This document shows, one piece after another, positions 26,093 through 64,000 of a stretch of 64,000 nt of DNA. The position numbers and the translations under genes are program-made. The stretch spans positions 1,860,001 to 1,924,000 of the forward strand of contig NZ_CP051130.1 in NCBI RefSeq assembly GCF_013378055.1, given 5' to 3'. The notes below the pieces were generated by a model. That model saw nothing but the letters and a program-made list of their open reading frames with translations, searched no databases and had not been told where the DNA came from. Position 1 is the first letter of the stretch; each line of letters starts with the position of its first letter. The DNA is from Parasphingopyxis sp. CP4. Its GTDB lineage: Bacteria; Pseudomonadota; Alphaproteobacteria; Sphingomonadales; Sphingomonadaceae.

Positions 26093-27475
26093 ATGACCCA
26101 TCAGTTCGATCCCACAACACTTCGCGAATATGACATTCGCGGTATCGTCGGCGAGACATTGAGTGAGGATGACGCACGCGCGATCGGACGTAGCTTTGGC
26201 ACGATGATCCGGCGTGCCGGGGGCAGTCGCGTGGTTGTGGGTTATGATGGCAGGACCAGTTCTCCGATACTGGAAGAAGCGTTGGTCGAAGGATTGAATG
26301 CCGCCGGTGTCGATGCGGTCCGGATCGGGCTCGGGCCCACACCGATGCTCTATTATGCCGAAGCCGTGTTAGAAGTTGATGGCGGCATAGAAATAACCGG
26401 CAGTCACAACCCCGCCAATTATAATGGCTTCAAGATGGTCTTTCAGCATGGACCGTTTTTTGGAAGCGATATCCAGGCGCTGGGAGCGATGGCGCTCGCG
26501 GGAGACTGGGAAAGCGGTTCCGGTACGAGCGAAACGGTCGATATCGCTGACGCCTATGTTGATCGCCTCGTGGCGAGCCATGCGGGCGGCGAGTTTCGGA
26601 TCGGCTGGGATGCGGGCAATGGTGCGGCCGGCGAGATTGTCGAACGGCTTGTCGCTCGGCTTCCGGGCGAACATTTCACGCTTTTCACCGATATCGATGG
26701 GTCTTTCCCTAATCATCATCCCGATCCAACAGAAGAAGCCAATCTCGCAGATCTCAAGCAGCTCGTCGCGGAGAAGAATCTCGATTTCGGAGTGGCTTTT
26801 GACGGGGATGGAGACCGGATCGGTGCGATCGATGGCACAGGCCGCGTAATCTGGGGCGACCAACTGCTCGCGATATTGGCGGAACCTGTCCTGTTAAAGG
26901 ACCCGGGCGCAACGATTATCGCGGATGTGAAGGCCAGCCAGGCGCTGTATGACCGGATCGCGGAACTGGGCGGCAATCCGCTGATGTGGAAAACCGGCCA
27001 TTCGCTGATTAAGTCCAAAATGAAGGAAACAGACTGTCCGCTGGCCGGCGAGATGAGTGGCCATGTCTTCTTTGCGCAGGATTATTACGGCTTTGATGAT
27101 GCGCTATATGCCGCCGTCCAACTGATTTCCTCGGCCCATATTCTTGACCAGAGTGTCACCCAATTGCGCGATGCCATTCCAGATATGATCAATACGCCCG
27201 AGATGCGGTTCCAGGTGGATGAGAGCCGCAAATTCGCCGTGATCGATGAGGTGCTGGAGCGCCTGCGCACGGAAGGCGCGAACGTCAACGATACGGACGG
27301 CGCCCGGGTTAACACCGAGGATGGCTGGTGGCTGTTGCGCGCGTCCAATACGCAGGACGTACTGGTTGCCCGCGCCGAGGCTAAGAGCGAAGCCGGTCTC
27401 GAACGGCTGATGGCGCAGATTGACAGTCAGCTTGCCGCCTCCGGCCTCGAACGCGGACCGCAAGCCGGGCATTGA
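26093..27475 (+). CDS. pgmG: Phosphomannomutase/phosphoglucomutase
   Basis: 460 residues, alpha-D-phosphohexomutase family. The phosphoserine loop is [16 protein letters not shown], the metal loop [13 protein letters not shown], the sugar-specificity loop GEMSGHVFF and the phosphate-binding end [15 protein letters not shown]. Close to the bifunctional PgmG of Sphingomonas, which makes mannose-1-P and glucose-1-P for exopolysaccharide. GGAG lies upstream of the ATG. The DUF1801 gene begins at its stop. Confidence 0.93.
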
Positions 27476-27879
27476 TGGTCGAGCCGGCCTTCCAGTCGGA
27501 CGCGGTCGAGAATCGGTTCGCTGCCTATGCCGAGCCAATGCGCGATCGGCTGCTTGCACTGCGCGCCCTGATCTTCGAAACGGCAGCCGCCACCGACGGT
27601 GTGGGCGCAATTGAAGAAACACTCAAATGGAATGAGCCTGCCTATATAGCCAAAACCGGGACCACGATCCGGATCAACGCGCATAAAAAGTCCGAGACCG
27701 AGTACGCCCTCTATGTGCATTGCCAGACCGATCTGCTCGACCGCTATCGCGCGCTCTATTCGGAAGAACTCGAGTTCGACGGGAATCGGGCGATCCTTTT
27801 TGATGGCGCCGCCCGATTACCAACCGATCCACTGCGCCACTGTATCGCAATGGCCCTGCTCTATCATCAGAAAGCTTAA
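27475..27879 (+). CDS. DUF1801 (YdhG-like) protein
   Basis: 134 residues, soluble. The family pattern is visible in IEETLKWNEPAYIAKTGTTI and INAHKKSETEYALYVHCQTD. Members are small alpha/beta proteins of unknown function related to YdhG/YjhG. It is coupled to pgmG through a TGATG overlap; a TTG one codon earlier could also serve. It is followed by the intergenic stretch with the candidate small RNA. Confidence 0.85.
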   Translation: MVEPAFQSDAVENRFAAYAEPMRDRLLALRALIFETAAATDGVGAIEETLKWNEPAYIAKTGTTIRINAHKKSETEYALYVHCQTDLLDRYRALYSEELEFDGNRAILFDGAARLPTDPLRHCIAMALLYHQKA

Positions 27880-28050: not shown

Positions 28051-29049
28051 CTAATCGTCTTCGTCCTCACGACCGGCCATTGCGAGCGCACGTGCCTTGA
28101 TCTGGCGAGTCTCGCACCAATGCACGAGCGCATCTTCGCGGCCATGGGTGACCCAAACCTCTTTCGGGCGCAGCTCCTCAAGCGTGCTGGTCAACTCATC
28201 CCAATCGGCATGATCCGATAGAATAAGCGGAAGCTCGACATTGCGTTGGCGGGCCCGCTGGCGAATGCGCATCCAGCCAGATGCCATCGCCGTGATCGGA
28301 TCCGGCAGCCGCCGCGACCAACGATCGTTTAACGCGCTGGGTGGTGCGATCACGATCGCACCGCGCATATCCTCCTTGGATGCATCGGTCGCCGGACGCA
28401 GCTCTCCGAGAGCTACACCATGGTCTTCATAGAGATCGCACAGCCGTTGGAGCGCGCCATGAATATAGAGCGGTTCACTATGCCCCGCGGCGCGCAACTC
28501 GGTGATCACCCGCTGCGCCTTGCCCAACGCATAGGCGCCGACCAGCACACAGCGATCGGGATTGGCGGCATGAGCATCGCGGATCTTGGCAATCTCGTCC
28601 GCCGTGTCGGGATGGCAAAATACGGGCAGTCCAAAAGTCGCCTCGGTGATGAAGATGTCGCAAGGTACCGGTTCGAAGGGCGGGCATGTCGGATCGGGAC
28701 GGCGCTTATAATCGCCCGATATGACGACGGTTTCTCCGGCATATTCAAGGACAATCTGGGCTGAACCGAGCACATGCCCGGCCGGGACAAAGCGCGCGCT
28801 GACCTCTCCGAACATAACCGGCTCACCATAGGTGACAGGGTTTGCGGATTGCGGGCCGTAGCGCACCTCCATGATCGCGAGCGTTTCGGTGGTCGCCCAG
28901 ACCGCACCATGGCCGCCGCGCGCATGATCGGCATGGCCATGGGTGACCAGAGCCCTGTCCTTCGGCCGGGACGGGTCAATCCAGATATCCGCGACCGGCA
29001 CATAAATGCCTTCAGGGCGCGGATCGATCCAATGTCCAAGACGGGCCAT
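28051..29049 (-). CDS. Ligase-associated DNA exonuclease (MBL/beta-CASP-like)
   Basis: 332 residues, metallo-beta-lactamase fold related to mRNA 3'-end processing and SNM1-type nucleases. Metal motifs are VTHGHADHARGG, ISGDYKRRPDPTCPPFE and LSDHADWDEL. This family is normally encoded with an ATP-dependent DNA ligase, an Lhr-type helicase and PdeM as a DNA-damage-response set; here the helicase and PdeM are 1.6 and 7.5 kb away and the ligase is absent. The ATG at 29049 (MARLGHWIDPRPEGIYV) fits homologues; longer frames overlap the divergent HD gene. Confidence 0.88.
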   Translation of the reverse strand: MARLGHWIDPRPEGIYVPVADIWIDPSRPKDRALVTHGHADHARGGHGAVWATTETLAIMEVRYGPQSANPVTYGEPVMFGEVSARFVPAGHVLGSAQIVLEYAGETVVISGDYKRRPDPTCPPFEPVPCDIFITEATFGLPVFCHPDTADEIAKIRDAHAANPDRCVLVGAYALGKAQRVITELRAAGHSEPLYIHGALQRLCDLYEDHGVALGELRPATDASKEDMRGAIVIAPPSALNDRWSRRLPDPITAMASGWMRIRQRARQRNVELPLILSDHADWDELTSTLEELRPKEVWVTHGREDALVHWCETRQIKARALAMAGREDEDD

Positions 29050-29089
29050 TTCAACTATATAGTCAATCATAACGGAGTAGACACAGACA

Positions 29090-29629
29090 ATGACCGAATA
29101 TCCAAACTCCCCCGCCCTGCTGCTTGAAGCAGCGCGCTTTTCTGCAGAGCGCCACCGCAACCAGCGCCGCAAAGATGCGGACGCGACGCCCTATATCAAC
29201 CACCCCCTATCTGTGGCCGCATTGCTGGCTGAACATGGCGTAGTCGATGGCGAAGTGCTGGCCGCCGCGCTCCTTCACGACACGGTCGAGGATACCGAAA
29301 CGAGTTTTGAAGAACTTGAGATCAAATTCGGCGCGCGGGTGACCGCGATCGTCGCCGAAGTGACCGATGACAAGGCACTCCCCAAGGCCGAACGCAAACG
29401 GCTGCAAGTCGCGCATGCGCCACACAAATCGCCGGACGCGCGCTTGGTGAAGATTGCTGACAAGACCAGCAATCTCACCGATATTGTGCATTCGGCGCCG
29501 GGCTGGCCACTCGAACGCAAACAGGATTATTTCGATTGGGCGAAAGACGTTGTCGACCTCATGCGCGGGATCAATGCTGAACTCGAAGCGGCCTTCGACG
29601 CGATCTATGCGAAGCGGCCGACCGAATAA
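29090..29629 (+). CDS. Stand-alone HD-domain ppGpp hydrolase-like protein (MESH1/SpoT type)
   Basis: 179 residues with only the HD hydrolase part of RelA/SpoT. Metal ligands are H38 in YINHPL, H63-D64 in ALLHDTVEDT and the Asp in LVKIADKTSNLTDI. The ED pair after HD, needed for pyrophosphohydrolysis, is present. There is no synthetase, TGS or ACT domain. It would lower (p)ppGpp or hydrolyse a related nucleotide. It is divergent from the exonuclease gene with about 40 bp between starts and convergent with the sulfotransferase. Confidence 0.88.
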   Translation: MTEYPNSPALLLEAARFSAERHRNQRRKDADATPYINHPLSVAALLAEHGVVDGEVLAAALLHDTVEDTETSFEELEIKFGARVTAIVAEVTDDKALPKAERKRLQVAHAPHKSPDARLVKIADKTSNLTDIVHSAPGWPLERKQDYFDWAKDVVDLMRGINAELEAAFDAIYAKRPTE

Positions 29630-29635
29630 GGCGCG

Positions 29636-30544
29636 TTATCCGCGCGCCCTAAGCGCCGCATCGAGCGCTGCATAGTCGGCAAAGCCCAGTGCAGGCTCGA
29701 TCCGCTCGGCCCAGATCGCATCCATGGCGTCGGCGATCTCGACCGGCAGCTCTTTCTTGTGCCCGCCAACCCCACCCTTTCTGACTTTTGCTGAGTCACT
29801 GCCGCTCGGCAGGTTGCACCGGCGTTCCGACAATCGCCGGTTCATCGCATCGTCGAAATGATCCTTATGCTCGAGCATATAGGCAAGCGATGATCGCTCC
29901 AGGGTGAGGGCAAGAAGATCGTCGGAAAGCGCGATACCGCAAAAATCGGCAACCCCGCGAACATGGTCTTCGGGTGTTTCGATCATATGCTCATAGGTGA
30001 CGAGCATGACATTCGGATTATCGATCTGTTCCCACCAGCTGAGCAGATGATCCCAATAGCCGCCGCCTTCGGGCCCACCGATCTTCCAGCCTTCGAAGAA
30101 ATGCTCGATCGGCACGGTGCCGGGCTCGATGAACCAGCCTTCCATGAAACGAAACATCGAGACGAAGGCGTCTTTCGGGTTGCGCAGCGATACGATGTAG
30201 CGCGCGCCCTTGGGGATGGCGGTGTAGGAGAGATGGCTCTTGAAGCCGCGCGGTTCGGCGCGTTGCTCGGCATTGATGTCGATTTCCAGGCCGATCGTTG
30301 GTTCGATCCATGGCACGACGCGCGAAATATCGTCAAAATCCATGTCGCCACCGGTGCGCAGCTGGTGAAAGGTCTGCTGGAGCCAGGTCGTCCCGCATTT
30401 TCCATAGGGGGAGATGATCACATCGCTTGGCCGCGGCTGATAGGATTCAATGGCCCTGGCCACTTGTTCCGGCACGAACATCTTGCCCATCAATTCGCCA
30501 AATTCAGGCGCACTTTGCGCCCGCCGTGGTGTGCCATCCGTCAT
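29636..30544 (-). CDS. PAPS-dependent sulfotransferase
   Basis: 302 residues (PF00685 fold). The 5'-phosphosulfate loop is SPYGKCGTTWLQQ (residues 45-57) and the 3'-phosphate motif is in IVSLRNPKDAFVSMFRF; the C-terminal RKGGVGGHKKELP matches the family's RKGxxGxWK element with His replacing Trp. It transfers sulfate from PAPS to an alcohol or amine; the acceptor is unknown. It stands alone on the minus strand inside the repair-gene region, with AGGGGG before the ATG. Confidence 0.88.
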   Translation of the reverse strand: MTDGTPRRAQSAPEFGELMGKMFVPEQVARAIESYQPRPSDVIISPYGKCGTTWLQQTFHQLRTGGDMDFDDISRVVPWIEPTIGLEIDINAEQRAEPRGFKSHLSYTAIPKGARYIVSLRNPKDAFVSMFRFMEGWFIEPGTVPIEHFFEGWKIGGPEGGGYWDHLLSWWEQIDNPNVMLVTYEHMIETPEDHVRGVADFCGIALSDDLLALTLERSSLAYMLEHKDHFDDAMNRRLSERRCNLPSGSDSAKVRKGGVGGHKKELPVEIADAMDAIWAERIEPALGFADYAALDAALRARG

Positions 30545-30648
30545 CTATGTCCCCCTTGTGCTGGATCGCTGTATCGGTGCGGACCTGCCGAAAGGCAAGC
30601 GGCGCTCTAGAGTCTCGCAACTCTCGATCAATCGTCTAGACTGGGACC

Positions 30649-33072
30649 GTGTCCTCCCCCCTGCCCTCACCCATCCTGAGCTGGTTCGATGAACGCGGTT
30701 GGCAACCGCGCCGCCACCAGCTCGACATGCTCCATGCCGCGCGAGCGGGAAAACATGCCCTGCTCGTCGCGCCGACCGGAGCAGGCAAAACTTTAGCTGG
30801 CTTCCTCCCCAGCCTTGCGGATCTGGTGGACAATCCCAGCGACGGATTGCACACCCTCTATGTCTCTCCGCTCAAGGCATTGGCGGTTGATGTGCAGCGC
30901 AACCTGCTTGGACCGATCGACGAGATGGGCCTCGACATCCGGGTCGAGACACGCACCGGGGACACACCCCATAATCGCAAGGTGCGGCAGCGGCAGCGGC
31001 CCCCGCATATGCTGCTCACCACCCCGGAATCGCTGAGCTTGCTGGTGTCTTACGCGGATAGCGCGTCGCTATTTGCAGACTTGAAAACCGTGATCGTCGA
31101 TGAGGTGCATGCCTTTGCCACCCAGAAACGGGGCGATCTCCTCAACCTGTCCATGTCCCGCCTGCAAAGCCTTGCGCCGGGTCTGCGCCGTGTCGCGCTA
31201 TCGGCAACTGTCGCCGATCCGCATGGCTATGCGGAATGGCTGGCACCGAATGGCGATACGGGTTCGGTCGAAAAGGTGATCGGCGAAGACGGTGCCGAAG
31301 CCGAGATTGAGATCCTGCTGCCCGAAGATCGCGTGCCCTGGTCTGGTCATTCGGGAGCCTATGCGACCGAACAGGTGATGGACATCATCGCCCAGCACAA
31401 GACGACGCTCGTTTTCTGTAACACGCGCGGCTTGGCGGAACTCATTTTCCAGCAGCTATGGAAAGCCAATGGCGGCGAGCTCCCGATCGGCATCCATCAT
31501 GGCTCGCTCTCGCGCGAGGCGCGCCGCAAGGTGGAAGCGGCCATGGCGCGCGGCGAGCTGCGCGGACTCGTCGCGACCGCCAGCCTCGATCTGGGAGTTG
31601 ATTGGGGCGATGTCGATTGTGTTGTGCAGATGGGTGCGCCCAAGGGTGCCTCGCGATTGCTGCAGCGGATTGGCCGCTCCAACCACCGGCTTGACGAACC
31701 GTCCAAGGCGATCCTCGTTCCCGGTAATCGCTTTGAATATCTCGAGGCCCGAGCCGCGCTTGATGCGGTAAGCGAGCGGGAGCTGGATACCGAGAGCTTC
31801 CGTCCCGGCAGCCTTGATGTGCTGGCCCAGCATCTGATGGCCTGTGCCTGCGCTGCACCGTTCGAGGAAGGCGACATGCTCGCCGAAATCCGGTCGGCAG
31901 CTCCCTATCGCAACTTGCGGTCAGCCGATTTCAGCCGTGAGCTCGAATATATCGCCAATGGCGGATACGCCCTGCGCGCCTATGACCGTTACAAGCGGCT
32001 GGTGAGCATGGTCGATGATGACGGACAAACAATCTGGCGCGTCAGCCACCCCAAATTCGAAAAGCAGCATCGCCTCAATGCCGGCATCATCGTCGATGCG
32101 CCGATCCTGGACGTGCGCTTCAAAAATGGCCGCAAGCTCGGCACGGTCGAGGAGATGTTTGCTGCCTCGCTATCGGTCGGCGACACATTCTTTTTTGCCG
32201 GCCTCAGCCTGGAAGTGCTGTCGATGAAGGATACGGACCTGTTCGTGCGCGCCTCCACACGACCAGCGCGGATACCGACCTATGGCGGCACCCGCATGGC
32301 GCTGTCGACCAATCTCGCCGATCGGGTGCGCGGGTTTCTGAACAACCCGGCGGAATGGGAAGCCTTTCCCGAAGATGTTGAAGAATGGCTCCGTGTCCAG
32401 TCCGAACGCTCTGTCCTGCCCAAGCCGGGCGAGCTCTTGATCGAGACATTCCCGCATGAGGATCGCCACTTCATGGTCGCCTATAGTTTCGAAGGCTGGA
32501 ATGCCCATCAATCGCTCGGCATGCTGGTGACCCGGCGGATGGAGAGTGCTGGCCTGAAACCGATCGGCTTTGTTGCCAATGATTACAGCTTCGCGACCTA
32601 TTCACTCGAGCGCGTGCGCGACCCAGTGCCTTTATTCTCTACCGATATACTGGAGGATGAATTTGTCGACTGGGTCCAGAACAGCCATCTTCTCAAGCGC
32701 GCCTTCCGCGATGTGGCCGTGATTGGCGGGCTGGTCGAACGCCAGCATCCCGGCAAGCGCAAAACCGGCAAGCAGGTCACTTTCTCGACCGATCTCATCT
32801 ATGACGTGTTGCGGCGATACGAACCCGATCATCTGTTGCTTCAGGCGGCCTGGGCGGATGCGCGGACCAAGCTCACCGATGTCGGTCGCCTCGCCAGCCT
32901 GCTCGAACGCGCAGCCGAGACAATGGTGCATGTCGATCTCCCGCGCGTTTCGCCCCTCGCGGTTCCCGTATTGGTGCTGATCGGACGCGAACATGTGGCC
33001 CAGGGTAGCGTTGATGACGCCCTGCTCATTGAAGCGGAAGCGCTGGCTGATATCGCAATGAAATCGGACTAG
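30649..33072 (+). CDS. Ligase-associated DEXH-box helicase (Lhr-type)
   Basis: 807 residues with a GTG start. Superfamily 2 motifs: Walker A APTGAGKTLAGFLPSL (about 40-55), DEVH near residue 151, SATV, LDLGVDWGDVDC, and the arginine-finger motif QRIGRSNHR; the Lhr-core winged-helix and DUF1998-less C-terminal parts follow. The length fits the ligase-associated subtype rather than the about 1,500-residue Lhr. It translocates on ssDNA and unwinds duplexes in the damage-response set with PdeM and the MBL exonuclease. It is divergent from the sulfotransferase. Confidence 0.93.
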   Translation: MSSPLPSPILSWFDERGWQPRRHQLDMLHAARAGKHALLVAPTGAGKTLAGFLPSLADLVDNPSDGLHTLYVSPLKALAVDVQRNLLGPIDEMGLDIRVETRTGDTPHNRKVRQRQRPPHMLLTTPESLSLLVSYADSASLFADLKTVIVDEVHAFATQKRGDLLNLSMSRLQSLAPGLRRVALSATVADPHGYAEWLAPNGDTGSVEKVIGEDGAEAEIEILLPEDRVPWSGHSGAYATEQVMDIIAQHKTTLVFCNTRGLAELIFQQLWKANGGELPIGIHHGSLSREARRKVEAAMARGELRGLVATASLDLGVDWGDVDCVVQMGAPKGASRLLQRIGRSNHRLDEPSKAILVPGNRFEYLEARAALDAVSERELDTESFRPGSLDVLAQHLMACACAAPFEEGDMLAEIRSAAPYRNLRSADFSRELEYIANGGYALRAYDRYKRLVSMVDDDGQTIWRVSHPKFEKQHRLNAGIIVDAPILDVRFKNGRKLGTVEEMFAASLSVGDTFFFAGLSLEVLSMKDTDLFVRASTRPARIPTYGGTRMALSTNLADRVRGFLNNPAEWEAFPEDVEEWLRVQSERSVLPKPGELLIETFPHEDRHFMVAYSFEGWNAHQSLGMLVTRRMESAGLKPIGFVANDYSFATYSLERVRDPVPLFSTDILEDEFVDWVQNSHLLKRAFRDVAVIGGLVERQHPGKRKTGKQVTFSTDLIYDVLRRYEPDHLLLQAAWADARTKLTDVGRLASLLERAAETMVHVDLPRVSPLAVPVLVLIGREHVAQGSVDDALLIEAEALADIAMKSD

Positions 33073-33100
33073 TTACTCCGATTCGATCTAATTTAATGCC

Positions 33101-33149
33101 ATTTATCGACGGTATTGCGACATTTGTCGTTACGAATCGGTTTATCGAC
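33101..33149. repeat. Three spaced copies of an ATTTATCGAC-like element
   Basis: ATTTATCGAC at 33101, ATTTGTCGTT at 33122 and GTTTATCGAC at 33140 are 21 and 18 bp apart, near two helical turns, upstream of the small secreted-protein gene. A 7-bp hairpin CGCCCGT-CGAA-ACGGGCG follows at 33160-33177. Possibly a multi-site operator. Confidence 0.3.
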
Positions 33150-33260
33150 ACAGATGTACCGCCCGTCGAAACGGGCGCGACACAGCTGTATTGTAATCAT
33201 AATACACCCTGACCCGCCTGATTCGGAGCGGGCGATAATAATCGGTTCAGGAGTGTACCC

Positions 33261-33665
33261 ATGTTTAGTAAAATCAGTGCCAAATCCCGCCTTGTGATTG
33301 CCGCCTTTGCGCTACCGGCGGCCAGCATGGCGGCCTATGTAGCGCCAGCCCATGCACAGGCCGAAGCGGTCAATGCACAACAGATGGCCGAAGGCCTTGT
33401 CGCCGCCCTCAACGGTGGCAGCGGCGATCGCAGCCGTTGGGCCCGCGATCACATGCTGTCCGACGGTGGCTTCCGCCAGCGATTGACCCAGTTGAACCGG
33501 ATTGCCCGGCGTACCGGCGACTTGACCCTGGTTGAGGTCGCCGAGCTGGACAGCGGCATGGTCTTGCAGGTCCGCAACGGTAGCGGACGCACCCACGCAA
33601 TCAGTGTTCTCATGGATGGACGTCGACCCGACAAAGTTCTCGGCGTCGGTATGCGCGGCCTCTAG
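33261..33665 (+). CDS. Small exported protein of unknown function
   Basis: 134 residues. A signal peptide ends at the AHAQA site near residue 33. The mature protein has a helical basic half (GDRSRWARDHMLSDGGFRQR) and a beta-rich half (LVEVAELDSGMVLQVRNGSG). I do not recognise a domain. A good ribosome site (AGGAG, 33249-33253) precedes the ATG, and its 188-bp upstream region holds spaced repeats, so it is probably regulated on its own. Confidence 0.75.
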   Translation: MFSKISAKSRLVIAAFALPAASMAAYVAPAHAQAEAVNAQQMAEGLVAALNGGSGDRSRWARDHMLSDGGFRQRLTQLNRIARRTGDLTLVEVAELDSGMVLQVRNGSGRTHAISVLMDGRRPDKVLGVGMRGL

Positions 33666-33784
33666 CGACCGCCAGTCACCCGGTCGCCCTCCTGCGACCC
33701 GGGCCAGCCGTTCGGTGCCAGCGAATATTTCTTCGCTAGCGCCGAGCGGCTGGTTAGCTTTGCCCGCGACAGCTGGGCAAAAAA

Positions 33785-33828
33785 CCGCTAGCTCCGCTCA
33801 TCAGTGCAAATTTGAGGGGAGCTAGTGG
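33785..33828 (+). promoter_or_regulatory. Hairpin masking the dipeptidase ribosome site and start codon
   Basis: CCGCTAGCTCC (33785-33795) can pair with GGAGCTAGTGG (33818-33828) over 11 bp, ten Watson-Crick and one G-U, with a 22-nt loop. The 3' arm covers the Shine-Dalgarno GAGGGGAG and the GTG start at 33825. This is the geometry of a translational switch such as an RNA thermometer or a site for a protein or sRNA. Confidence 0.45.
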
Positions 33829-35048
33829 TGCGGACATTCGGATTGAGACTGGGTGCAGCGGCTTGGGCAATTATAGCATCATCGACAGCAGCATGTGCGC
33901 AGGATCCAGCGCCAGAAGCAGTGGATGGCGCTACAGTTCACGAACAGTTGCTGACCCTCGATACGCATCTCGATACGCCGCTCCATATGATGCGCCCCGG
34001 CTGGAGCATGGCCGACCGCCATGATTATGAAACCGACAATAGCCAGGTCGATATTCCGCGCATGATCGAAGGCGGATTGGACGGTGGATTCTTTGTTATC
34101 TGGACGCCGCAAGGTCCGTTGACCGACGAAGGCTATGCGCGCGCCGCCGGTATGGCTGCATCACGCCAGCAGATTATCCTGGCGATGCTCGCAGCAAACT
34201 CCGACCAGGTTGAACGCGCGCGCACCGCGGATGATGCCGCGCGGATCGCGGCGACGGGTCGCCGCTTCGTCTATCAAAGTATCGAAAATAGCTATCCGCT
34301 GGGCGAAGATGTCAGCGGGCTCGAGCAATTCTACAATAATGGCGTTCGCATGGTGGGCCCTGTCCATTCTGCGACGAACCAATTTTCTGACAGTGCTACC
34401 GGCGAGGAACTGTGGGGCGGCCTGAGCCCGTTAGGCCGCGCGCTGATTACTGAGATGAATCGCCTCGGCATCATTCCCGATGGGTCCCATGCCTCGGACG
34501 CAGCCTTTGATCAGATGATCGAGCTTTCAGCAACGCCAATCATCCTCTCGCATTCCGGTCCCAAGGTCGCGCATGATCATCCTCGCAACCTCGATGACGA
34601 GCGGATCCGGCGCCTGGCCGCGTCAGGCGGCGTGATTGCGGTCAACAGCATCTATCTTGCGCCGCGCAGCAATGCTCCAGAATGGCAGGCAATCAGCCGC
34701 CGTTTCATGGAAATGTTCTCCGAATCCGCCGAGGTTCAACAAGCCTATGTCCGCGATCTACGCGCGCTCGAGGCTGTCACACCGCGCGAAGATGCTGATT
34801 TCGAAATGTTCATGGCCAGCCTCATGCATCTGATCGAGGTTGCCGGTGTCGACCATGTCGCTTTTGGTGCAGACTGGGACGGTGGCGGCGGTGTCGAGAA
34901 TATGCGTGACATCACGGCTCTGCCGCAAATCACGGCCCGCCTGCTGGCCGCTGGGCACACCATGTCCGAACTCAACAAGATGTGGAGTGGCAATGTGCTG
35001 CGACTGTTGCGGGCCGCCGAAGCGCATGCTGCTGGCCACGGCAGCTAA
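33825..35048 (+). CDS. Membrane dipeptidase, peptidase family M19 (renal dipeptidase-like)
   Basis: 407 residues, GTG start, signal peptide ending near ACAQ (residue 25). Zinc-site elements are LDTHLDTPLH (HxD), the glutamate in VYQSIENSYPLGED, ILSHSGPKVAHDHPRN and FGADWDGGG. The family cleaves L,D- or D,L-dipeptides and some beta-lactams; here it is probably periplasmic, in peptide scavenging or wall turnover. A second GTG at 33828 could also start it. The start region is sequestered in an 11-bp hairpin. Confidence 0.92.
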   Translation: MVRTFGLRLGAAAWAIIASSTAACAQDPAPEAVDGATVHEQLLTLDTHLDTPLHMMRPGWSMADRHDYETDNSQVDIPRMIEGGLDGGFFVIWTPQGPLTDEGYARAAGMAASRQQIILAMLAANSDQVERARTADDAARIAATGRRFVYQSIENSYPLGEDVSGLEQFYNNGVRMVGPVHSATNQFSDSATGEELWGGLSPLGRALITEMNRLGIIPDGSHASDAAFDQMIELSATPIILSHSGPKVAHDHPRNLDDERIRRLAASGGVIAVNSIYLAPRSNAPEWQAISRRFMEMFSESAEVQQAYVRDLRALEAVTPREDADFEMFMASLMHLIEVAGVDHVAFGADWDGGGGVENMRDITALPQITARLLAAGHTMSELNKMWSGNVLRLLRAAEAHAAGHGS

Positions 35049-35078
35049 GCGCAATTTGCGCCGCATGATCGGCAGCGG

Positions 35079-36485
35079 ATGAGCGAAACGGATACCGAAG
35101 AAGACACGGCCAGCTGGCGCGAAACGCTGGCGGGCGGTCGCTGGCCGAGCTTCACGCTCATCATGTTCGGTATCTGGCTGATGGCCGCTGACGCGCTTGT
35201 CACCACCACGATCATGCCAAGCGTCGGCCGGGACCTCGACGGCTATGCCTGGTTCGGCTGGGCGACGTCAGGCTATCTGGTCGGTGTCGTCGCCGCTGCA
35301 TCCTGCGCTGGTTGGCTTTCTGACCGGATCGGGTTGCGACCTGCAATGATCGGTTCGGGCCTGTTGCTCGCCATTGGCTGTCTCGTCAGCGCAGCCGGCC
35401 CCGACATGCCGACCTTTGTCGCGGGACGGATGATCCAGGGCGTTGGCGCGGGTTGGGTCGCGGGCTTTTGCTATGTCACCATCAATCTGGTGTTCGAAGC
35501 GCGTTACCTGGTGCGCGTGTTTGCAGCCGCGACTAGCATCTGGGGTGTGGCGACGTTTCTCGGGCCGCTCGTTGGTGGTTTGTTCGCCGATGCCGGAAAC
35601 TGGCGCGGCGTCTTCTGGCTGTTCGCCGGACAGGCCGTGCTCTTCGCGATCGCGGCGGCGCGGCTCGTGCCGGCAAGCGAACGCAAACCTGGCGAAGGCG
35701 GCTTACCCCTCCTCCAGATCACGCTCATCGTGCTTGGGGTAAGCGGGTTATCGAGCGCCGGCGTTATCGATTCCGGCACGGTCCAGTTAATTCTTATCCC
35801 GGTAAGCATTGTTCTGCTCGCCGTCGCAGTAATTTATGACCGGACAGCCCGCGCCCGGCTATTGCCGCGCACGGCCACGCGTTTTGGCACGTTGATCGGG
35901 GCGGCCTATGCGACCTATTTCCTGTTGCTGGCGGGCGAAGTCGGGTTCGCCATCTATGCACCGGCGATCCTGCAATTCACGCACGGACTAACGGCCACCC
36001 AAGCCGGCTATGTCGTCGCGGTCGAGGCGCTCGCCTGGACCATCGCTGCGCTAGCGGTAGCGGGATCGGGTGAAAGGTGGAGACGGCGCTGGATTGTGAT
36101 TGGCGCGGCCTGTGTGCCGCTATCGCTGACCCTGTTGAGCTTTGTGCTCGCTGGACCGATGCTGTTCCTTGTGATTATCGGCGGCGCGCTGCTCGGTGCC
36201 GGTTTTGGCTTGGCATACAGTTTTATCAGCCGTGCTGTTATGGCTTCGCTCGACGAAGATGAGCGGGCGACCGGTTCGGCCGGCATTGGCGCAGTACGCG
36301 ATGCAGGCGCTGCGACGGGCGCGGCCATTGCCGGGATCGCCGCGAACCTTGTCGGCTTTGCCGATGGACTAACGGCTGAAAGCGTCGCGCTGACCGGCTT
36401 CTGGGTCTGCGCGATCGGTATCCCGCTGGCGCTACTGGGTCTTGTCACCGCCATGCGCCTGACCCGCATCCAGGCCCTTGATTAG
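35079..36485 (+). CDS. Major facilitator superfamily transporter
   Basis: 468 residues with about 12-14 helices. The MFS signature between helices 2 and 3 is GWLSDRIGLRPAMIG, and motif C-like GVATFLGPLVGGLFAD points to the drug:H+ antiporter (DHA) group. N-terminus is acidic. The substrate is unknown; efflux is likely. It is 30 bp downstream of the dipeptidase gene and 26 bp upstream of pdeM, so the three may share a message. Confidence 0.88.
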   Translation: MSETDTEEDTASWRETLAGGRWPSFTLIMFGIWLMAADALVTTTIMPSVGRDLDGYAWFGWATSGYLVGVVAAASCAGWLSDRIGLRPAMIGSGLLLAIGCLVSAAGPDMPTFVAGRMIQGVGAGWVAGFCYVTINLVFEARYLVRVFAAATSIWGVATFLGPLVGGLFADAGNWRGVFWLFAGQAVLFAIAAARLVPASERKPGEGGLPLLQITLIVLGVSGLSSAGVIDSGTVQLILIPVSIVLLAVAVIYDRTARARLLPRTATRFGTLIGAAYATYFLLLAGEVGFAIYAPAILQFTHGLTATQAGYVVAVEALAWTIAALAVAGSGERWRRRWIVIGAACVPLSLTLLSFVLAGPMLFLVIIGGALLGAGFGLAYSFISRAVMASLDEDERATGSAGIGAVRDAGAATGAAIAGIAANLVGFADGLTAESVALTGFWVCAIGIPLALLGLVTAMRLTRIQALD

Positions 36486-36511
36486 GTAAGCCCAGCGCGG
36501 CACACAGGGCC

Positions 36512-37174
36512 ATGGTTCGCTTTTCGTTCTCCGGTCATGATCTGGTCGCGCTGCCCCAGGCGGCGCTCTTCTGGCCGGCGCGCAAGGCATTGCTGGTCGC
36601 CGACCTCCATTTCGAAAAGGCGAGCTGGTTTGCGCGGTTCGGACAGATGCTGCCACCCTATGACAGCGAAGCTACACTCGCCGATCTTGAGGCGCTCGTC
36701 GCCGCTACCGATGCGCGTGAACTCTGGTGTCTCGGCGATAGTTTCCACGACAGCGCGGGCAGCGAGCGCATGTCTCCCAAGGCGCGCGATACATTGGCAT
36801 CGCTCACCGACCGTATCGACTGGACCTGGATCACCGGCAATCACGATGAAGCGATCAATGCCGATCACGGTGGCACGGTGATCGAGGAAGCCGAGGTCGA
36901 TGGGCTGCTGCTGCGTCATGAGGCCGATCCAAGAGAGACGCGACCCGAACTCTCCGGACATTTCCATCCCAAGCTGCGCATCCGTCTTCGCGGCAAGGGT
37001 GTATCGCGCCGCTGTTTCGTAGCGACGGAACGCAAGCTGATCCTGCCCGCATTTGGCGCGCTGACCGGCGGTCTGGATGCTGGCCATCCGGAGATCATCC
37101 GGGCTGTCGGACCAGATGCGCAGGCGCTCGTACCGGTTCAGGATCGGTTGTTGCGCTTCCCGCTGGCTGCTTAG
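36512..37174 (+). CDS. pdeM: Ligase-associated DNA damage response endonuclease PdeM
   Basis: 220 residues, calcineurin-like metallophosphoesterase. Motifs in order: VADLHFEKASWF (D31, H33), CLGDSFHD, ITGNHDEAI, LLRHEADP and SGHFHPKLRI. PdeM is the nuclease member of the set that includes the Lhr-type helicase at 30649 and the MBL exonuclease at 28051. Here it has been separated from the helicase by three unrelated genes. Convergent with msrA. Confidence 0.9.
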   Translation: MVRFSFSGHDLVALPQAALFWPARKALLVADLHFEKASWFARFGQMLPPYDSEATLADLEALVAATDARELWCLGDSFHDSAGSERMSPKARDTLASLTDRIDWTWITGNHDEAINADHGGTVIEEAEVDGLLLRHEADPRETRPELSGHFHPKLRIRLRGKGVSRRCFVATERKLILPAFGALTGGLDAGHPEIIRAVGPDAQALVPVQDRLLRFPLAA

Positions 37175-37218: not shown

Positions 37219-37911
37219 TCAAGCCGCTGGCGTGCTCGTGAACATTTGCGGGAAGGTTGCCTGGAGATCTTCCACCTTCTCGACGTCATGGGCGAGAATA
37301 TAGGGGTGGCGCGGGTTCCGGTTCATGAAGTCCTGATGATAATCTTCGGCATCGTAGAAACGCCCGCTTTCAAGCCGGGTGGCAATCGGGCGGGAAAAGC
37401 GTCCGGAATCGTTCAGCAAAGCGATATAGCGCCGCGAAACACTGCGCTGGGCAGCATTTTGCGGGAAGATCGCTGAGCGATAGTCTGAGCCAACATCGGG
37501 GCCCTGGCGATCGACCTGGGTCGGATCATGGGCAACCGAGAAATAGATGCGAAGCAGTTCGCCATAGGTGACGATATTCGGATCATAAACGATGCGGACC
37601 GCCTCGGCATGGCCTGTCCGGCCGGTTCCGACCTGTTCATAGGTGGCCGTCTCCGCGCTGCCGCCAGCATAGCCGGATCGGACGCTGCGGACGCCCCGCA
37701 CATGCTGGAACACGGCTTCCATGCCCCAGAAACATCCACCCGCAAACACGGCGACCTGGGCTTCCTCGGTCGCGATCACATTGGTGCGCGGGCCAGGGAT
37801 AGGGACAGCCGCTTCAACGGATTGATGCGTGGTGGGCAGGGATAATGCGGCGATCGCAGCAATCGCTGCGCCCGTGCCGAGTGCAAAGGTGACAAGCTTT
37901 TTCACAATCAT
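37219..37911 (-). CDS. msrA: Exported peptide-methionine (S)-S-oxide reductase
   Basis: 230 residues. An N-terminal signal/anchor (about 1-34) precedes the MsrA domain; the catalytic Cys60 is in AGGCFWGMEAVF, with YAGGSAETATYEQVGTGRTG and the recycling-region residues typical of the family. It reduces the S epimer of methionine sulfoxide in proteins. It lies 5 bp downstream of an exported MsrB, together a periplasmic oxidative repair pair. A matching thiol donor is not encoded nearby. Confidence 0.93.
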   Translation of the reverse strand: MIVKKLVTFALGTGAAIAAIAALSLPTTHQSVEAAVPIPGPRTNVIATEEAQVAVFAGGCFWGMEAVFQHVRGVRSVRSGYAGGSAETATYEQVGTGRTGHAEAVRIVYDPNIVTYGELLRIYFSVAHDPTQVDRQGPDVGSDYRSAIFPQNAAQRSVSRRYIALLNDSGRFSRPIATRLESGRFYDAEDYHQDFMNRNPRHPYILAHDVEKVEDLQATFPQMFTSTPAA

Positions 37912-37916
37912 CGAAA

Positions 37917-38411
37917 CTAACTCCTAGCCGGCACGAAATCCATCGCGACGCCATTTATACAGTAACGCAGGCCGGTCGGGCGGGGCCCATCGCGGAACAC
38001 ATGACCGAGATGCCCGCCGCAATCCGCGCAATGGACTTCGGTTCGCACCATTCCGAGGCTGCGATCGGTGCTGGTGCCGATTGCGCCATCAAGCGGCCGG
38101 TAGAAACTCGGCCAGCCAGTCCGACTGTCAAATTTTGTGGCGGAGCTGAACAGGCGGTTTTCGCAACCAGCGCACGTAAAAGTCCCGCGCCGGCTCTCAT
38201 CGTCGAGCGGGCTCGTAAAGGGCCGTTCGGTGCCATGGCCCCGCAAGATGCGGAACTCTTCCGGCGTCAGTCGCTCGCGCCATTGCGCTTCGGTATAGCG
38301 GACGGGAAAATCGCCGCTATTGGTCGCATCGGCCCGGCCGCTGCAGCCGATAAGGCTGGCAAGCATGCCGACAGCGCCGCCGCTCAGGATCGTTCGTCGA
38401 TCAATCGTCAT
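37917..38411 (-). CDS. msrB: Exported peptide-methionine (R)-S-oxide reductase, Tat/lipoprotein signal
   Basis: 164 residues. The N-terminus has a twin-arginine stretch (DRRTILSGG, R5-R6) and a lipobox LIGC ending at C23, so it is probably a Tat-exported lipoprotein. The MsrB domain has zinc cysteines C80, C83, C128 and C131 and catalytic C151 in RYCING. It reduces the R epimer of methionine sulfoxide. The ATG at 38411 has GAGGTGAA upstream; an in-frame extension to 38498 is rejected since it buries the signal sequence. Confidence 0.93.
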   Translation of the reverse strand: MTIDRRTILSGGAVGMLASLIGCSGRADATNSGDFPVRYTEAQWRERLTPEEFRILRGHGTERPFTSPLDDESRRGTFTCAGCENRLFSSATKFDSRTGWPSFYRPLDGAIGTSTDRSLGMVRTEVHCADCGGHLGHVFRDGPRPTGLRYCINGVAMDFVPARS

Positions 38412-38608
38412 AGGCTTCACCTCTTTACTGCACCCGAGTTTCCGCTGGGCTGGCTTAACCGGCACTGAAACCCGGGCGTACACGCCCCATGCCTTCATTC
38501 GGCGACAGGCCTGGTTTCGTTACACCATGCCGTCAATACTCATTGCATTTAGGCGGTGAACCGGCTTTTGTGCAGTGCAATGCGACACGGAAAATCTTCA
38601 TAAGCGCG

Positions 38609-62920: not shown

Positions 62921-64000
62921 CTATCCGCCTTTACGAAACGGCGTCATCTCGCCCAGAAATTCGATTTCCCGATCCACCGCCTGGCGTTCGGCCGCGACAA
63001 AGTCTGCCACCGCACGATGGAAACCCGGATCCGGAAAGAAATGGGCCGACCAGGTTTTGACCGGCCGATAACCGCGCGCCAATTTGTGCGAACCCTGGGC
63101 TCCCGCCTCCACGCGCTGCAACCCCCGCGCGATCGCCGCATCAATCGCCTGATAATAGCAGAGCTCAAAATGAAGGAACGGGACGTCGGCAAGACAGCCC
63201 CAATAGCGACCATAGAGCGTGTCCGCGCCGATCAGGTTGAGCGCGCCGGCGATCGGTGCGCCGTCGCGGCGCGCGAGGATCAACAGCGTCTGATCGCCCA
63301 TGCGTTCTCCGAGCAGCGAGAAAAATTCGCGTGTCAGATAGGGATGGCCCCATTTGCGCATGCCGGTGTCCTGGTAGAAATCCCAGAAGATGTCCCAATG
63401 ATCTTCGCTGAGCTCCGCGCCAGTCAGATGTTCGATCTCCAGCCCTTCGACCGCACGGCGCCGTTCCTTGCGGATCGCCTTGCGCTTGCGTGAGGCTAGC
63501 GCTGAGAGAAACGCGTCGAAATCCTCATAGCCATCATTTTCCCAATGAAACTGGGTGCCTTCACGGACCAGCCAGCCAGCATTTTCAAACCAGACGAGTT
63601 CATCTTCCGAGACGAACGTCGCATGGGCCGATGACATGCCATTGTCGCGCGTAATCGCTTCAAGCGCAGCGATCAGCGCCGGTATGCGTCCCGTGTCGCG
63701 CACCAGCAAGCGCCGTCCGGGAACCGGGGTAAACGGCACCGCGACCTGAAGCTTGGGATAATAGCTGCCCCCAGCCCGTTCCCACGCATCGGCCCAGGAA
63801 TGATCAAACACATATTCGCCCTGGCTATGGCTTTTCGCATAGGCGGGCGCGACTGCGTCCAGCATTCCGTCGGGTCCGGTGATCGACACCGGCACCGGCT
63901 GCCAGCCTGTCTGAGGTGACACGCTGCCCGATTCTTCGAGAATCGAGAGGAAGGCGTGACTGAGAAACGGATTGTCCGATCCAGCGCACGCATCCCATTG
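62921..64000 (-). CDS. FemAB-like/GNAT acyltransferase (DUF482), 5' end outside window
   Basis: At least 359 residues; the frame stays open to the right edge (upstream residues WDACAGSDNPFLSHAFLS match the family's N-terminus), so the gene begins beyond 64000. Features of PF04339: FDHSWADAWERAGGSYYPKL, RKRKAIRKERR, and GNAT-like GALNLIGADTLYGRYWGC. Members resemble peptidoglycan branch-forming FemAB proteins and GNAT enzymes; activity is unverified. It is transcribed toward the S9 peptidase with a 50-bp gap. Confidence 0.92.
   Translation of the reverse strand, partial: QWDACAGSDNPFLSHAFLSILEESGSVSPQTGWQPVPVSITGPDGMLDAVAPAYAKSHSQGEYVFDHSWADAWERAGGSYYPKLQVAVPFTPVPGRRLLVRDTGRIPALIAALEAITRDNGMSSAHATFVSEDELVWFENAGWLVREGTQFHWENDGYEDFDAFLSALASRKRKAIRKERRRAVEGLEIEHLTGAELSEDHWDIFWDFYQDTGMRKWGHPYLTREFFSLLGERMGDQTLLILARRDGAPIAGALNLIGADTLYGRYWGCLADVPFLHFELCYYQAIDAAIARGLQRVEAGAQGSHKLARGYRPVKTWSAHFFPDPGFHRAVADFVAAERQAVDREIEFLGEMTPFRKGG

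What the first reader, a model, noticed from the sequence alone, without database searches (positions are those of the whole stretch)
28051..37174. Ligase-associated DNA-damage-response set dispersed and without its ligase
Three members of the set (MBL exonuclease 28051-29049, Lhr-type helicase 30649-33072, PdeM 36512-37174) lie within 9 kb, but on both strands and interleaved with a ppGpp-hydrolase-like gene, a sulfotransferase, a secreted protein, a dipeptidase and an MFS transporter. In the usual arrangement the exonuclease, an ATP-dependent DNA ligase, the helicase and PdeM are contiguous. No ligase is in this window. Either the ligase is elsewhere, or the set works with another ligase here. 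The intervening genes may have been inserted into an ancestral cluster.
Basis: partly seen in the sequence, partly recalled or inferred. Interest (0 to 1): 0.62.

Follow-up and report, generated by a model that had tools for sequence, protein, structure and literature searches.

The report
Scattered DNA-repair gene set, complete
The bacterium does have the missing ligase, about 34 kilobases further along the chromosome, and comparing relatives shows that this four-gene DNA-repair set behaves as two pairs, a helicase with an endonuclease and an exonuclease with a ligase, the second of which can be lost as a pair even when its two genes lie far apart.

Summary
The three genes are real, and each passes its family cut-off. 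But the ligase is not missing: one TIGR04120 ligase (766.6 bits) lies 33.9 kb past PdeM, 7.1 kb beyond the window. The genus is Parasphingopyxis. Dispersal is ordinary: 16 of 67 alphaproteobacterial genomes with all four genes hold them within 8 kb. One relative, G026, has a compact set, so an opened ancestral cluster is plausible.

The better result is modularity. In 241 genomes helicase and PdeM co-occur in 91 of 91; exonuclease and ligase in 68 of 70, or 70 of 70 counting divergent ligase homologues; 22 have only helicase and PdeM. In Parasphingopyxis, exonuclease and ligase lie 42 kb apart, yet both were lost, in two lineages, while helicase and PdeM stayed under purifying selection.

Unexpected lead: 4 of 71 ligase ORFs lack the KxDGxR motif beside exonucleases that keep HxHxDH. 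Decay is not excluded. Nothing was tested at the bench.

The parts
28051..29049 (-). Ligase-associated MBL-fold exonuclease (TIGR04122); likely start at 29049 (MARLGHWI..)
   Evidence: 470.4 bits vs cut-off 325; HGHADH motif
29090..29629 (+). HD-domain SpoT/RelA-hydrolase-like protein; among the congeners' stretches examined, found only in G005
   Evidence: HD_4 67.2 bits; presence
29636..30544 (-). Sulfotransferase, intervening gene
   Evidence: PF00685 135.3 bits
30649..33072 (+). Lhr-Core type helicase (TIGR04121)
   Evidence: 1063.7 bits vs cut-off 850; APTGAGKT and DEVH motifs
33261..33665 (+). Small protein with a signal-peptide-like start (by eye), intervening gene
   Evidence: no family match
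33825..35048 (+). M19 dipeptidase, intervening gene
   Evidence: PF01244 287 bits
35079..36485 (+). MFS transporter, intervening gene
   Evidence: PF07690 112.2 bits
36512..37174 (+). PdeM / MPE endonuclease (TIGR04123)
   Evidence: 226.5 bits vs cut-off 150; PDB 6nvo/6nvp 'Nuclease MPE' E 2.2e-26. The fourth member, the ligase, lies outside the window at G000:C1:1931099-1932682 (+), 7.1 kb past window base 64000

Best explanation
This is a complete four-gene ligase-associated DNA-damage set (Lhr-Core helicase, PdeM/MPE endonuclease, MBL exonuclease, LigB-type ATP ligase) in a Parasphingopyxis chromosome, opened up by intervening genes, with the ligase about 34 kb away. It works as two modules. 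Module 1, helicase plus PdeM, is the core; inferred role: the helicase moves along single-stranded DNA and PdeM cuts it. Module 2, exonuclease plus ligase, is an add-on that trims the ends and, where the ligase is intact, seals them, acting as one unit. Shown here by sequence: the family assignments, the ligase's place, the co-occurrence, and two-site co-loss with module 1 retained. Inferred: the biochemical steps (from literature on relatives), and that exonuclease and ligase are functionally, perhaps physically, coupled.
For: Ligase present: TIGR04120, 766.6 bits, one copy; KWDGIR motif. Co-occurrence in 241 genomes at least 95% complete: helicase-PdeM 91/91; exonuclease-ligase 68/70 by the E-limited searches, and the two exceptions G108 and G146 hold a divergent ligase homologue next to the exonuclease (TIGR04120 289.7 and 105 bits, under the cut-off of 400), so 70/70 by homology; 22 genomes have helicase+PdeM only, 1 (G237) has exonuclease+ligase only. 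Six families hold both full-set and helicase+PdeM-only genomes. In the 60 relatives searched at E <= 0.001, 8 genomes have helicase+PdeM but no exonuclease or ligase over the cut-off. Unlinked test: in Parasphingopyxis G002, G004 and G008 both genes are missing, each site bridged on one contig with flanks in order, and the same three organisms have neither gene anywhere at E <= 1e-60. The tree's well-supported branches force at least two changes. Of the 47 block genes other than exonuclease and its neighbour DUF1801, the ligase is the only one lost in G002 and G008 and one of four lost in G004; rough chance 0.0018, post hoc. Helicase and PdeM stay constrained without their partners: G002-G008 dN 0.041 and 0.087 at pS 0.52 and 0.49. 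Published exonuclease-ligase fusions (PMC10140301, passages) point the same way.
Against: Only two independent unlinked co-losses are shown, so coupling rests on few events; most co-occurrence elsewhere could reflect linkage (64 of 67 pairs within 10 kb). I looked below the E limit only in the two exonuclease-without-ligase genomes, not in the 22 helicase+PdeM-only genomes of the class sample, so divergent partners there are not excluded. The DUF1801 gene next to the exonuclease is also missing in all three congeners, and G004 lost three further genes of the block, one beside the exonuclease and one beside the ligase. In 4 of 70 exonuclease genomes the ligase homologue lacks KxDGxR, so 'trim and seal' cannot be the whole story there. 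The Dry Valley fusion genes are not in the four-gene arrangement (PMC10140301). No shared LexA-type box was found (1 match in the window, 1.30 expected; 1 in the flank, 0.45 expected). No expression or biochemical data exist here.
Confidence: 0.8

Rival explanations
1. Plain genome rearrangement with no functional meaning: the four genes drifted apart, and the joint loss of exonuclease and ligase in Parasphingopyxis is coincidence.
For: Gene order in this set is fluid across the class (16 of 67 within 8 kb); only two loss events; the figure 0.0018 was computed post hoc and treats genes as equally losable.
Against: The ligase is the only gene outside the exonuclease deletion lost in G002 and G008 among 47 tested, and it is lost again in G004; exonuclease and a ligase homologue go together in 70 of 70 exonuclease-bearing genomes of the class sample.
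Confidence: 0.15
2. The set uses a different ligase in this organism.
For: No ligase of the family is in the window.
Against: The family's own ligase is on the same chromosome with an intact KWDGIR motif.
Confidence: 0.02
3. Exonuclease and ligase are consecutive steps of one pathway but do not touch; once either is lost the other is useless and decays.
For: Explains the co-loss equally well; in this genus the two genes sit 42 kb apart. The ligase homologues without KxDGxR may be such decay in progress: their exonucleases have long branches too.
Against: Published exonuclease-ligase fusions (PMC10140301, passages), adjacency within 0.5 kb in 55 of 67, and full-length ligase homologues kept beside the exonuclease after losing KxDGxR suggest closer contact.
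Confidence: 0.35

Closest known systems
LigB / Lhr-Core / MPE / Exo nucleic-acid repair cluster of Pseudomonas putida (Ejaz and Shuman 2018; Ejaz, Goldgur and Shuman 2019; the 2018 paper is not held, the 2019 one was not tried; known from passages in PMC10140301, PMC8301817 and PMC7437997)
   Same: All four protein families are present with their motifs; PdeM's only PDB sequence relatives at E <= 0.001 are the two 'Nuclease MPE' entries (that these are the P. putida protein is recalled).
   Different: Here the genes are spread over about 45 kb on both strands, with intervening genes and the ligase 34 kb from the rest.
bLhr-MPE gene pair (PMC8301817: MPE near bLhr in 276 of 319 genomes; passages)
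   Same: Helicase and PdeM are the constant pair.
   Different: Here they are about 3.4 kb apart, and the accessory exonuclease-ligase pair is also present.
Exonuclease-ligase fusion proteins (Opitutus terrae and Dry Valley metagenomes; PMC10140301, passages)
   Same: Same two partners.
   Different: Here they are separate genes 42 kb apart.

Membership tests
Ligase-associated DNA damage response set (TIGR04120-04123) | Exonuclease passes TIGR04122 cut-off | tested here: met
   470.4 vs 325 bits
Ligase-associated DNA damage response set (TIGR04120-04123) | Helicase passes TIGR04121 cut-off | tested here: met
   1063.7 vs 850 bits
Ligase-associated DNA damage response set (TIGR04120-04123) | PdeM passes TIGR04123 cut-off | tested here: met
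   226.5 vs 150 bits
Ligase-associated DNA damage response set (TIGR04120-04123) | Ligase passes TIGR04120 cut-off, same genome | tested here: met
   766.6 vs 400 bits, outside the window
Ligase-associated DNA damage response set (TIGR04120-04123) | Genes contiguous | tested here: not met
   Span 44.6 kb in G000; contiguity is not general in the class: 16 of 67 genomes within 8 kb
Ligase-associated DNA damage response set (TIGR04120-04123) | Catalytic motifs intact (motifs recalled) | tested here: met
   HGHADH; APTGAGKT and DEVH; DLH, GNHD, GHFHP; KWDGIR
Ligase-associated DNA damage response set (TIGR04120-04123) | Induced by or protective against DNA damage | not testable with these tools
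   No expression data; a search for a LexA-type box (pattern recalled) was not above chance
Anti-phage defence system | Members match PADLOC models | tested here: not met
   Exonuclease, PdeM and ligase: no match. The helicase matches 67 models, best DpdJ 261.6 bits over part of it; I read these as the shared helicase core

The most novel reading that the evidence does not exclude
The ligase of this set has a second job that needs no ligation: it is a DNA-binding partner or platform for the exonuclease. In genomes of four alphaproteobacterial families (G289, G108, G146, G087) the ligase homologue directly beside the exonuclease lacks KxDGxR (it reads LWTGAR, QGQGQR, LPSGSY and KLAGIR) yet remains an uninterrupted ORF of 486-588 aa, while its exonuclease keeps HxHxDH and 29-31 of 31 highly conserved polar columns. 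The exonuclease-ligase pair would then be a two-subunit nuclease in which sealing is optional, which would explain why the two genes come and go together even when unlinked.
Probability: 0.3. Interest if true: 0.72.

Novelty: new member of a known kind. Interest (0 to 1): 0.45.

Why it matters
The function of this widespread repair set is unresolved: PMC10140301 (passage) says that its precise role and the damage it targets are not known. That it divides into a core pair and an accessory pair makes the question testable. Parasphingopyxis offers close relatives with nearly the same gene order in this block that differ in whether the exonuclease and ligase are present. The ligase homologues without KxDGxR suggest an assay (does a catalytically dead ligase stimulate or load the exonuclease?) that does not assume ligation is the point.

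Tried and rejected
Shared SOS control: GTTCN7GTTC (pattern recalled as the alphaproteobacterial LexA box) gives one match in the window, inside the PdeM coding start (1.30 expected), and one in the 19-kb flank (0.45 expected), so no support.

Compensation by another ATP ligase: of the three congeners without the set's ligase, G004 shows one other ATP-ligase match (848-aa frame, LigD-like by length, my reading); G002 and G008 show none at E <= 0.001. No replacement pattern.

Ligase remnant in G008: a 34% tblastn hit came from the reverse strand of a neighbouring phosphoesterase gene, not from the ligase; rejected.

Exonuclease without ligase (G108, G146): first counted as exceptions (raw figure 68 of 70). 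The neighbouring gene proved to be a divergent ligase homologue that the E limit I had set had not let through. This correction favours my reading; I made no such second look in the 22 helicase+PdeM-only genomes of the class sample.

Independence of the four ligase homologues without KxDGxR: the exonuclease tree needs three changes, but well-supported branches force only one, so repeated origin is not shown. Their exonuclease branches are long (0.91-1.18; median 0.28), so relaxed constraint or early decay of both genes is not excluded. Identity to the intact ligases has dropped in all three parts of the protein, and G087 still has the lysine.

Rows treated specially: in the helicase count G098 and G293 (449-453 bits, frames of 1452-1478 aa, Lhr-HTH type by length) were left out and G161 (fragment, 783.6 bits, under the cut-off) was counted. 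In the 60 relatives G001 and G003 are fragmentary and appear as partial sets. Of 80 named loci, 50 went into the genome-wide searches: all 15 with no exonuclease in the locus (two of these cut short upstream), and 35 chosen isolates with one; 30 were left out, so those 50 are not a random sample. In some searches the genes are mechanical ORF picks.
Full report
WHAT IS THERE. The genes between them are as described. PdeM's only PDB sequence relatives at E <= 0.001 are the two 'Nuclease MPE' entries 6nvo and 6nvp. The helicase's best are the ATP-dependent DNA helicases 5v9x and 7lhl (I recall these as bacterial Lhr structures). The exonuclease's best are ribonuclease TTHA0252 and CPSF73-type nucleases.

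THE LIGASE. The window lies in a 2.96-Mb one-contig genome, at G000:C1:1860001-1924000. A single TIGR04120 ligase (766.6 bits, cut-off 400) is on the same contig. The protein from its first Met runs from 1931099 to 1932682, 33.9 kb past PdeM and 7.1 kb past the window. It carries KWDGIR. So the set is complete, with one copy of each over its cut-off.

WHO IT IS. The nearest named helicases (82-89% identity) belong to Parasphingopyxis; those of Sphingomonas and its kin follow at 72-76%, and one MAG named only as Sphingomonadales at 79%.

IS THE DISPERSAL UNUSUAL? No. In a class sample of 241 genomes (at least 95% complete), 67 hold all four by the E-limited searches: 16 within 8 kb, 26 within 15 kb, 32 split over contigs, some perhaps by assembly breaks. 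The steadiest neighbours are exonuclease-ligase (within 10 kb in 64 of 67) and helicase-PdeM (46 of 67). This genome is one of three of the 67 whose exonuclease and ligase are more than 10 kb apart or on different contigs. Nearer home this is common: among 47 hand-picked sphingomonad genomes with both genes, the two are within 0.5 kb in 4, 0.5-10 kb in 8, 10-100 kb in 5, over 100 kb in 6 and on different contigs in 24. Congener G006 has the same layout as G000, with the ligase 34.8 kb past PdeM. Yet relative G026 has a tight set of two divergent pairs, PdeM-helicase and exonuclease-ligase, with gaps of 80, 65 and 15 bp, and G014, G021, G019 and G046 look like opened versions of it. A compact ancestor, later opened by insertions and by a move of the ligase, is the simplest reading; I did not reconstruct ancestral order formally.

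TWO MODULES. Joint presence in the 241 genomes: all four 67; helicase+PdeM only 22; exonuclease+helicase+PdeM 2; exonuclease+ligase only 1; none 149. Helicase and PdeM co-occur in 91 of 91, including 21 of 67 four-gene genomes in which they are over 100 kb apart or on different contigs. The two apparent exonuclease-without-ligase genomes, G108 and G146, carry a divergent ligase homologue directly next to the exonuclease in compact clusters, so exonuclease and a ligase homologue go together in 70 of 70. I did not look below the E limit in the 22 helicase+PdeM-only genomes. In the 60 relatives, searched at E <= 0.001, 8 genomes have helicase and PdeM with no exonuclease or ligase over the cut-off; their only sub-threshold matches are a 46.7-bit one in G002 (exonuclease search) and the other ATP ligase of G004. 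Six families contain both full sets and helicase+PdeM-only genomes. G260 holds two exonuclease-ligase pairs but one helicase and one PdeM, as if the pair had been copied as a unit, though 5% contamination is given for that genome.

A NATURAL EXPERIMENT. Adjacent genes can be lost together by one deletion, so co-occurrence alone does not prove coupling. Parasphingopyxis removes that doubt in part: exonuclease and ligase are 42 kb apart, with helicase and PdeM between them. In G002, G004 and G008 the block is otherwise largely in the same order, but exonuclease and ligase are both gone. In G002 about 71 bp remain between the aligned ends of the ligase's neighbours. Both sites lie on a single contig in each, so assembly gaps do not explain the absences, and searches of the same three organisms' genomes find neither gene at E <= 1e-60. 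On a tree of six concatenated proteins, well-supported branches force at least two changes: G002 and G008 form one clade, G004 lies outside the clade that holds them and G000; the five outgroup genomes have both genes. Of 49 G000 genes in the block with a G006 counterpart, G002 and G008 lack three (DUF1801, exonuclease, ligase) and G004 lacks those three plus three more. Setting aside exonuclease and its neighbour DUF1801, the chance that the ligase is hit in both lineages is about (1/47)x(4/47) = 0.0018; this is post hoc, rests on mechanical ORF picks, and treats genes as equally losable. Helicase and PdeM remain intact, with motifs kept, and evolve under purifying selection in these lineages: G002 versus G008, helicase dN 0.041 at pS 0.52, PdeM dN 0.087 at pS 0.49; three full-set pairs (G000-G006, G000-G005, G005-G006) give 0.051-0.083 and 0.064-0.095 at pS 0.42-0.61.

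HOW IT PROBABLY WORKS. From passages: Lhr-Core is a 3'-to-5' single-strand translocase, found next to the manganese-dependent MPE in many genomes (PMC7437997; PMC8301817). The titles of Ejaz and Shuman 2018 and Ejaz et al. 2019, seen in reference lists, speak of a helicase, a manganese-dependent DNA nuclease and a single-strand DNA endonuclease. LigB-type ligases from metagenomes sealed nicked DNA, and exonuclease-ligase fusions exist, though the Dry Valley ones are not in the four-gene arrangement (PMC10140301). My inference: helicase and PdeM make or process single-strand gaps and can hand over to the general repair machinery; where present, exonuclease and ligase act together to trim and seal. 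In this genome the pairs work from separate loci. None of these steps was tested here.

AN UNEXPECTED LEAD. I examined 70 ligase ORFs of the class sample (67 search-positive genomes besides G000, a second copy in G260, and G108 and G146) and G000's own, 71 in all; 67 carry KxDGxR (66 of the 70, and G000). Four do not: G289 LWTGAR, G108 QGQGQR, G146 LPSGSY, G087 KLAGIR. That KxDG holds the lysine that takes up the nucleotide is recalled. They come from four families (group codes f132, f56, f94, f35). In each the homologue is an uninterrupted ORF of 486-588 aa beside the exonuclease, and each exonuclease keeps HxHxDH and 29-31 of 31 highly conserved polar columns; of the 14 H, D and E columns among these G108 has lost one. 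Columns conserved in intact ligases are kept best in the N-terminal region in three of the four (21-24 of 28), less in the middle (19-31 of 43) and least in the C-terminal region (19-25 of 49); G146 is eroded throughout. I take the N-terminal region to be the DNA-binding domain (PF04675). This suggests that the ligase protein matters to the exonuclease beyond sealing, but decay in progress is not excluded: the exonuclease branches are long too, and independent origin is not forced by the tree. The window's own ligase is not of this kind.

LITERATURE. Searches for the set's names, for Lhr-Core with MPE, LigB with Lhr helicase, 'cisplatin damage response', inactive ligase with Lhr, and 'pseudoligase' gave listings, and I read passages of five papers. 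None of what I saw describes two-module loss or ligase homologues without KxDGxR in this set. I read no paper whole. The two key biochemical papers were not seen (for the 2018 one, not held; the 2019 one not tried), so I cannot say that they do not mention either point.

Noticed in passing
L134:10973-12433 (+), L135:5810-7303 (-), L137 (G087), L138 (G289): Ligase homologues without KxDGxR beside exonucleases that keep HxHxDH, in four alphaproteobacterial families.
   Followed up: partly
L002:6223-7047 (-): A YaeI-like calcineurin-type phosphoesterase (97 bits, under the YaeI cut-off of 188) divergent from the ligase in this genome; also in G008, not found at that place in G002, G004 or G006.
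   Followed up: partly
window 29090-29629 (+): The HD-domain SpoT-like gene divergent from the exonuclease is found only in G000 and G005 among the Parasphingopyxis stretches examined.
   Followed up: partly
window 27472-27879 (+): A DUF1801 gene beside the exonuclease is missing in the three congeners that lost the exonuclease, but also in G007 and G009, which keep the exonuclease.
   Followed up: partly
G260 (C2 and C49; L158 and L153): Two copies of the exonuclease-ligase pair in one genome with a single helicase and PdeM; 5% contamination is given for it.
   Followed up: no
G237:C12 (L136): The only one of 241 sampled genomes with exonuclease+ligase but no helicase or PdeM at the limits used.
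   Followed up: no
window 37219-38498 (-): Adjacent genes that look like methionine sulfoxide reductases A and B follow PdeM on the opposite strand (read by eye, not tested).
   Followed up: no
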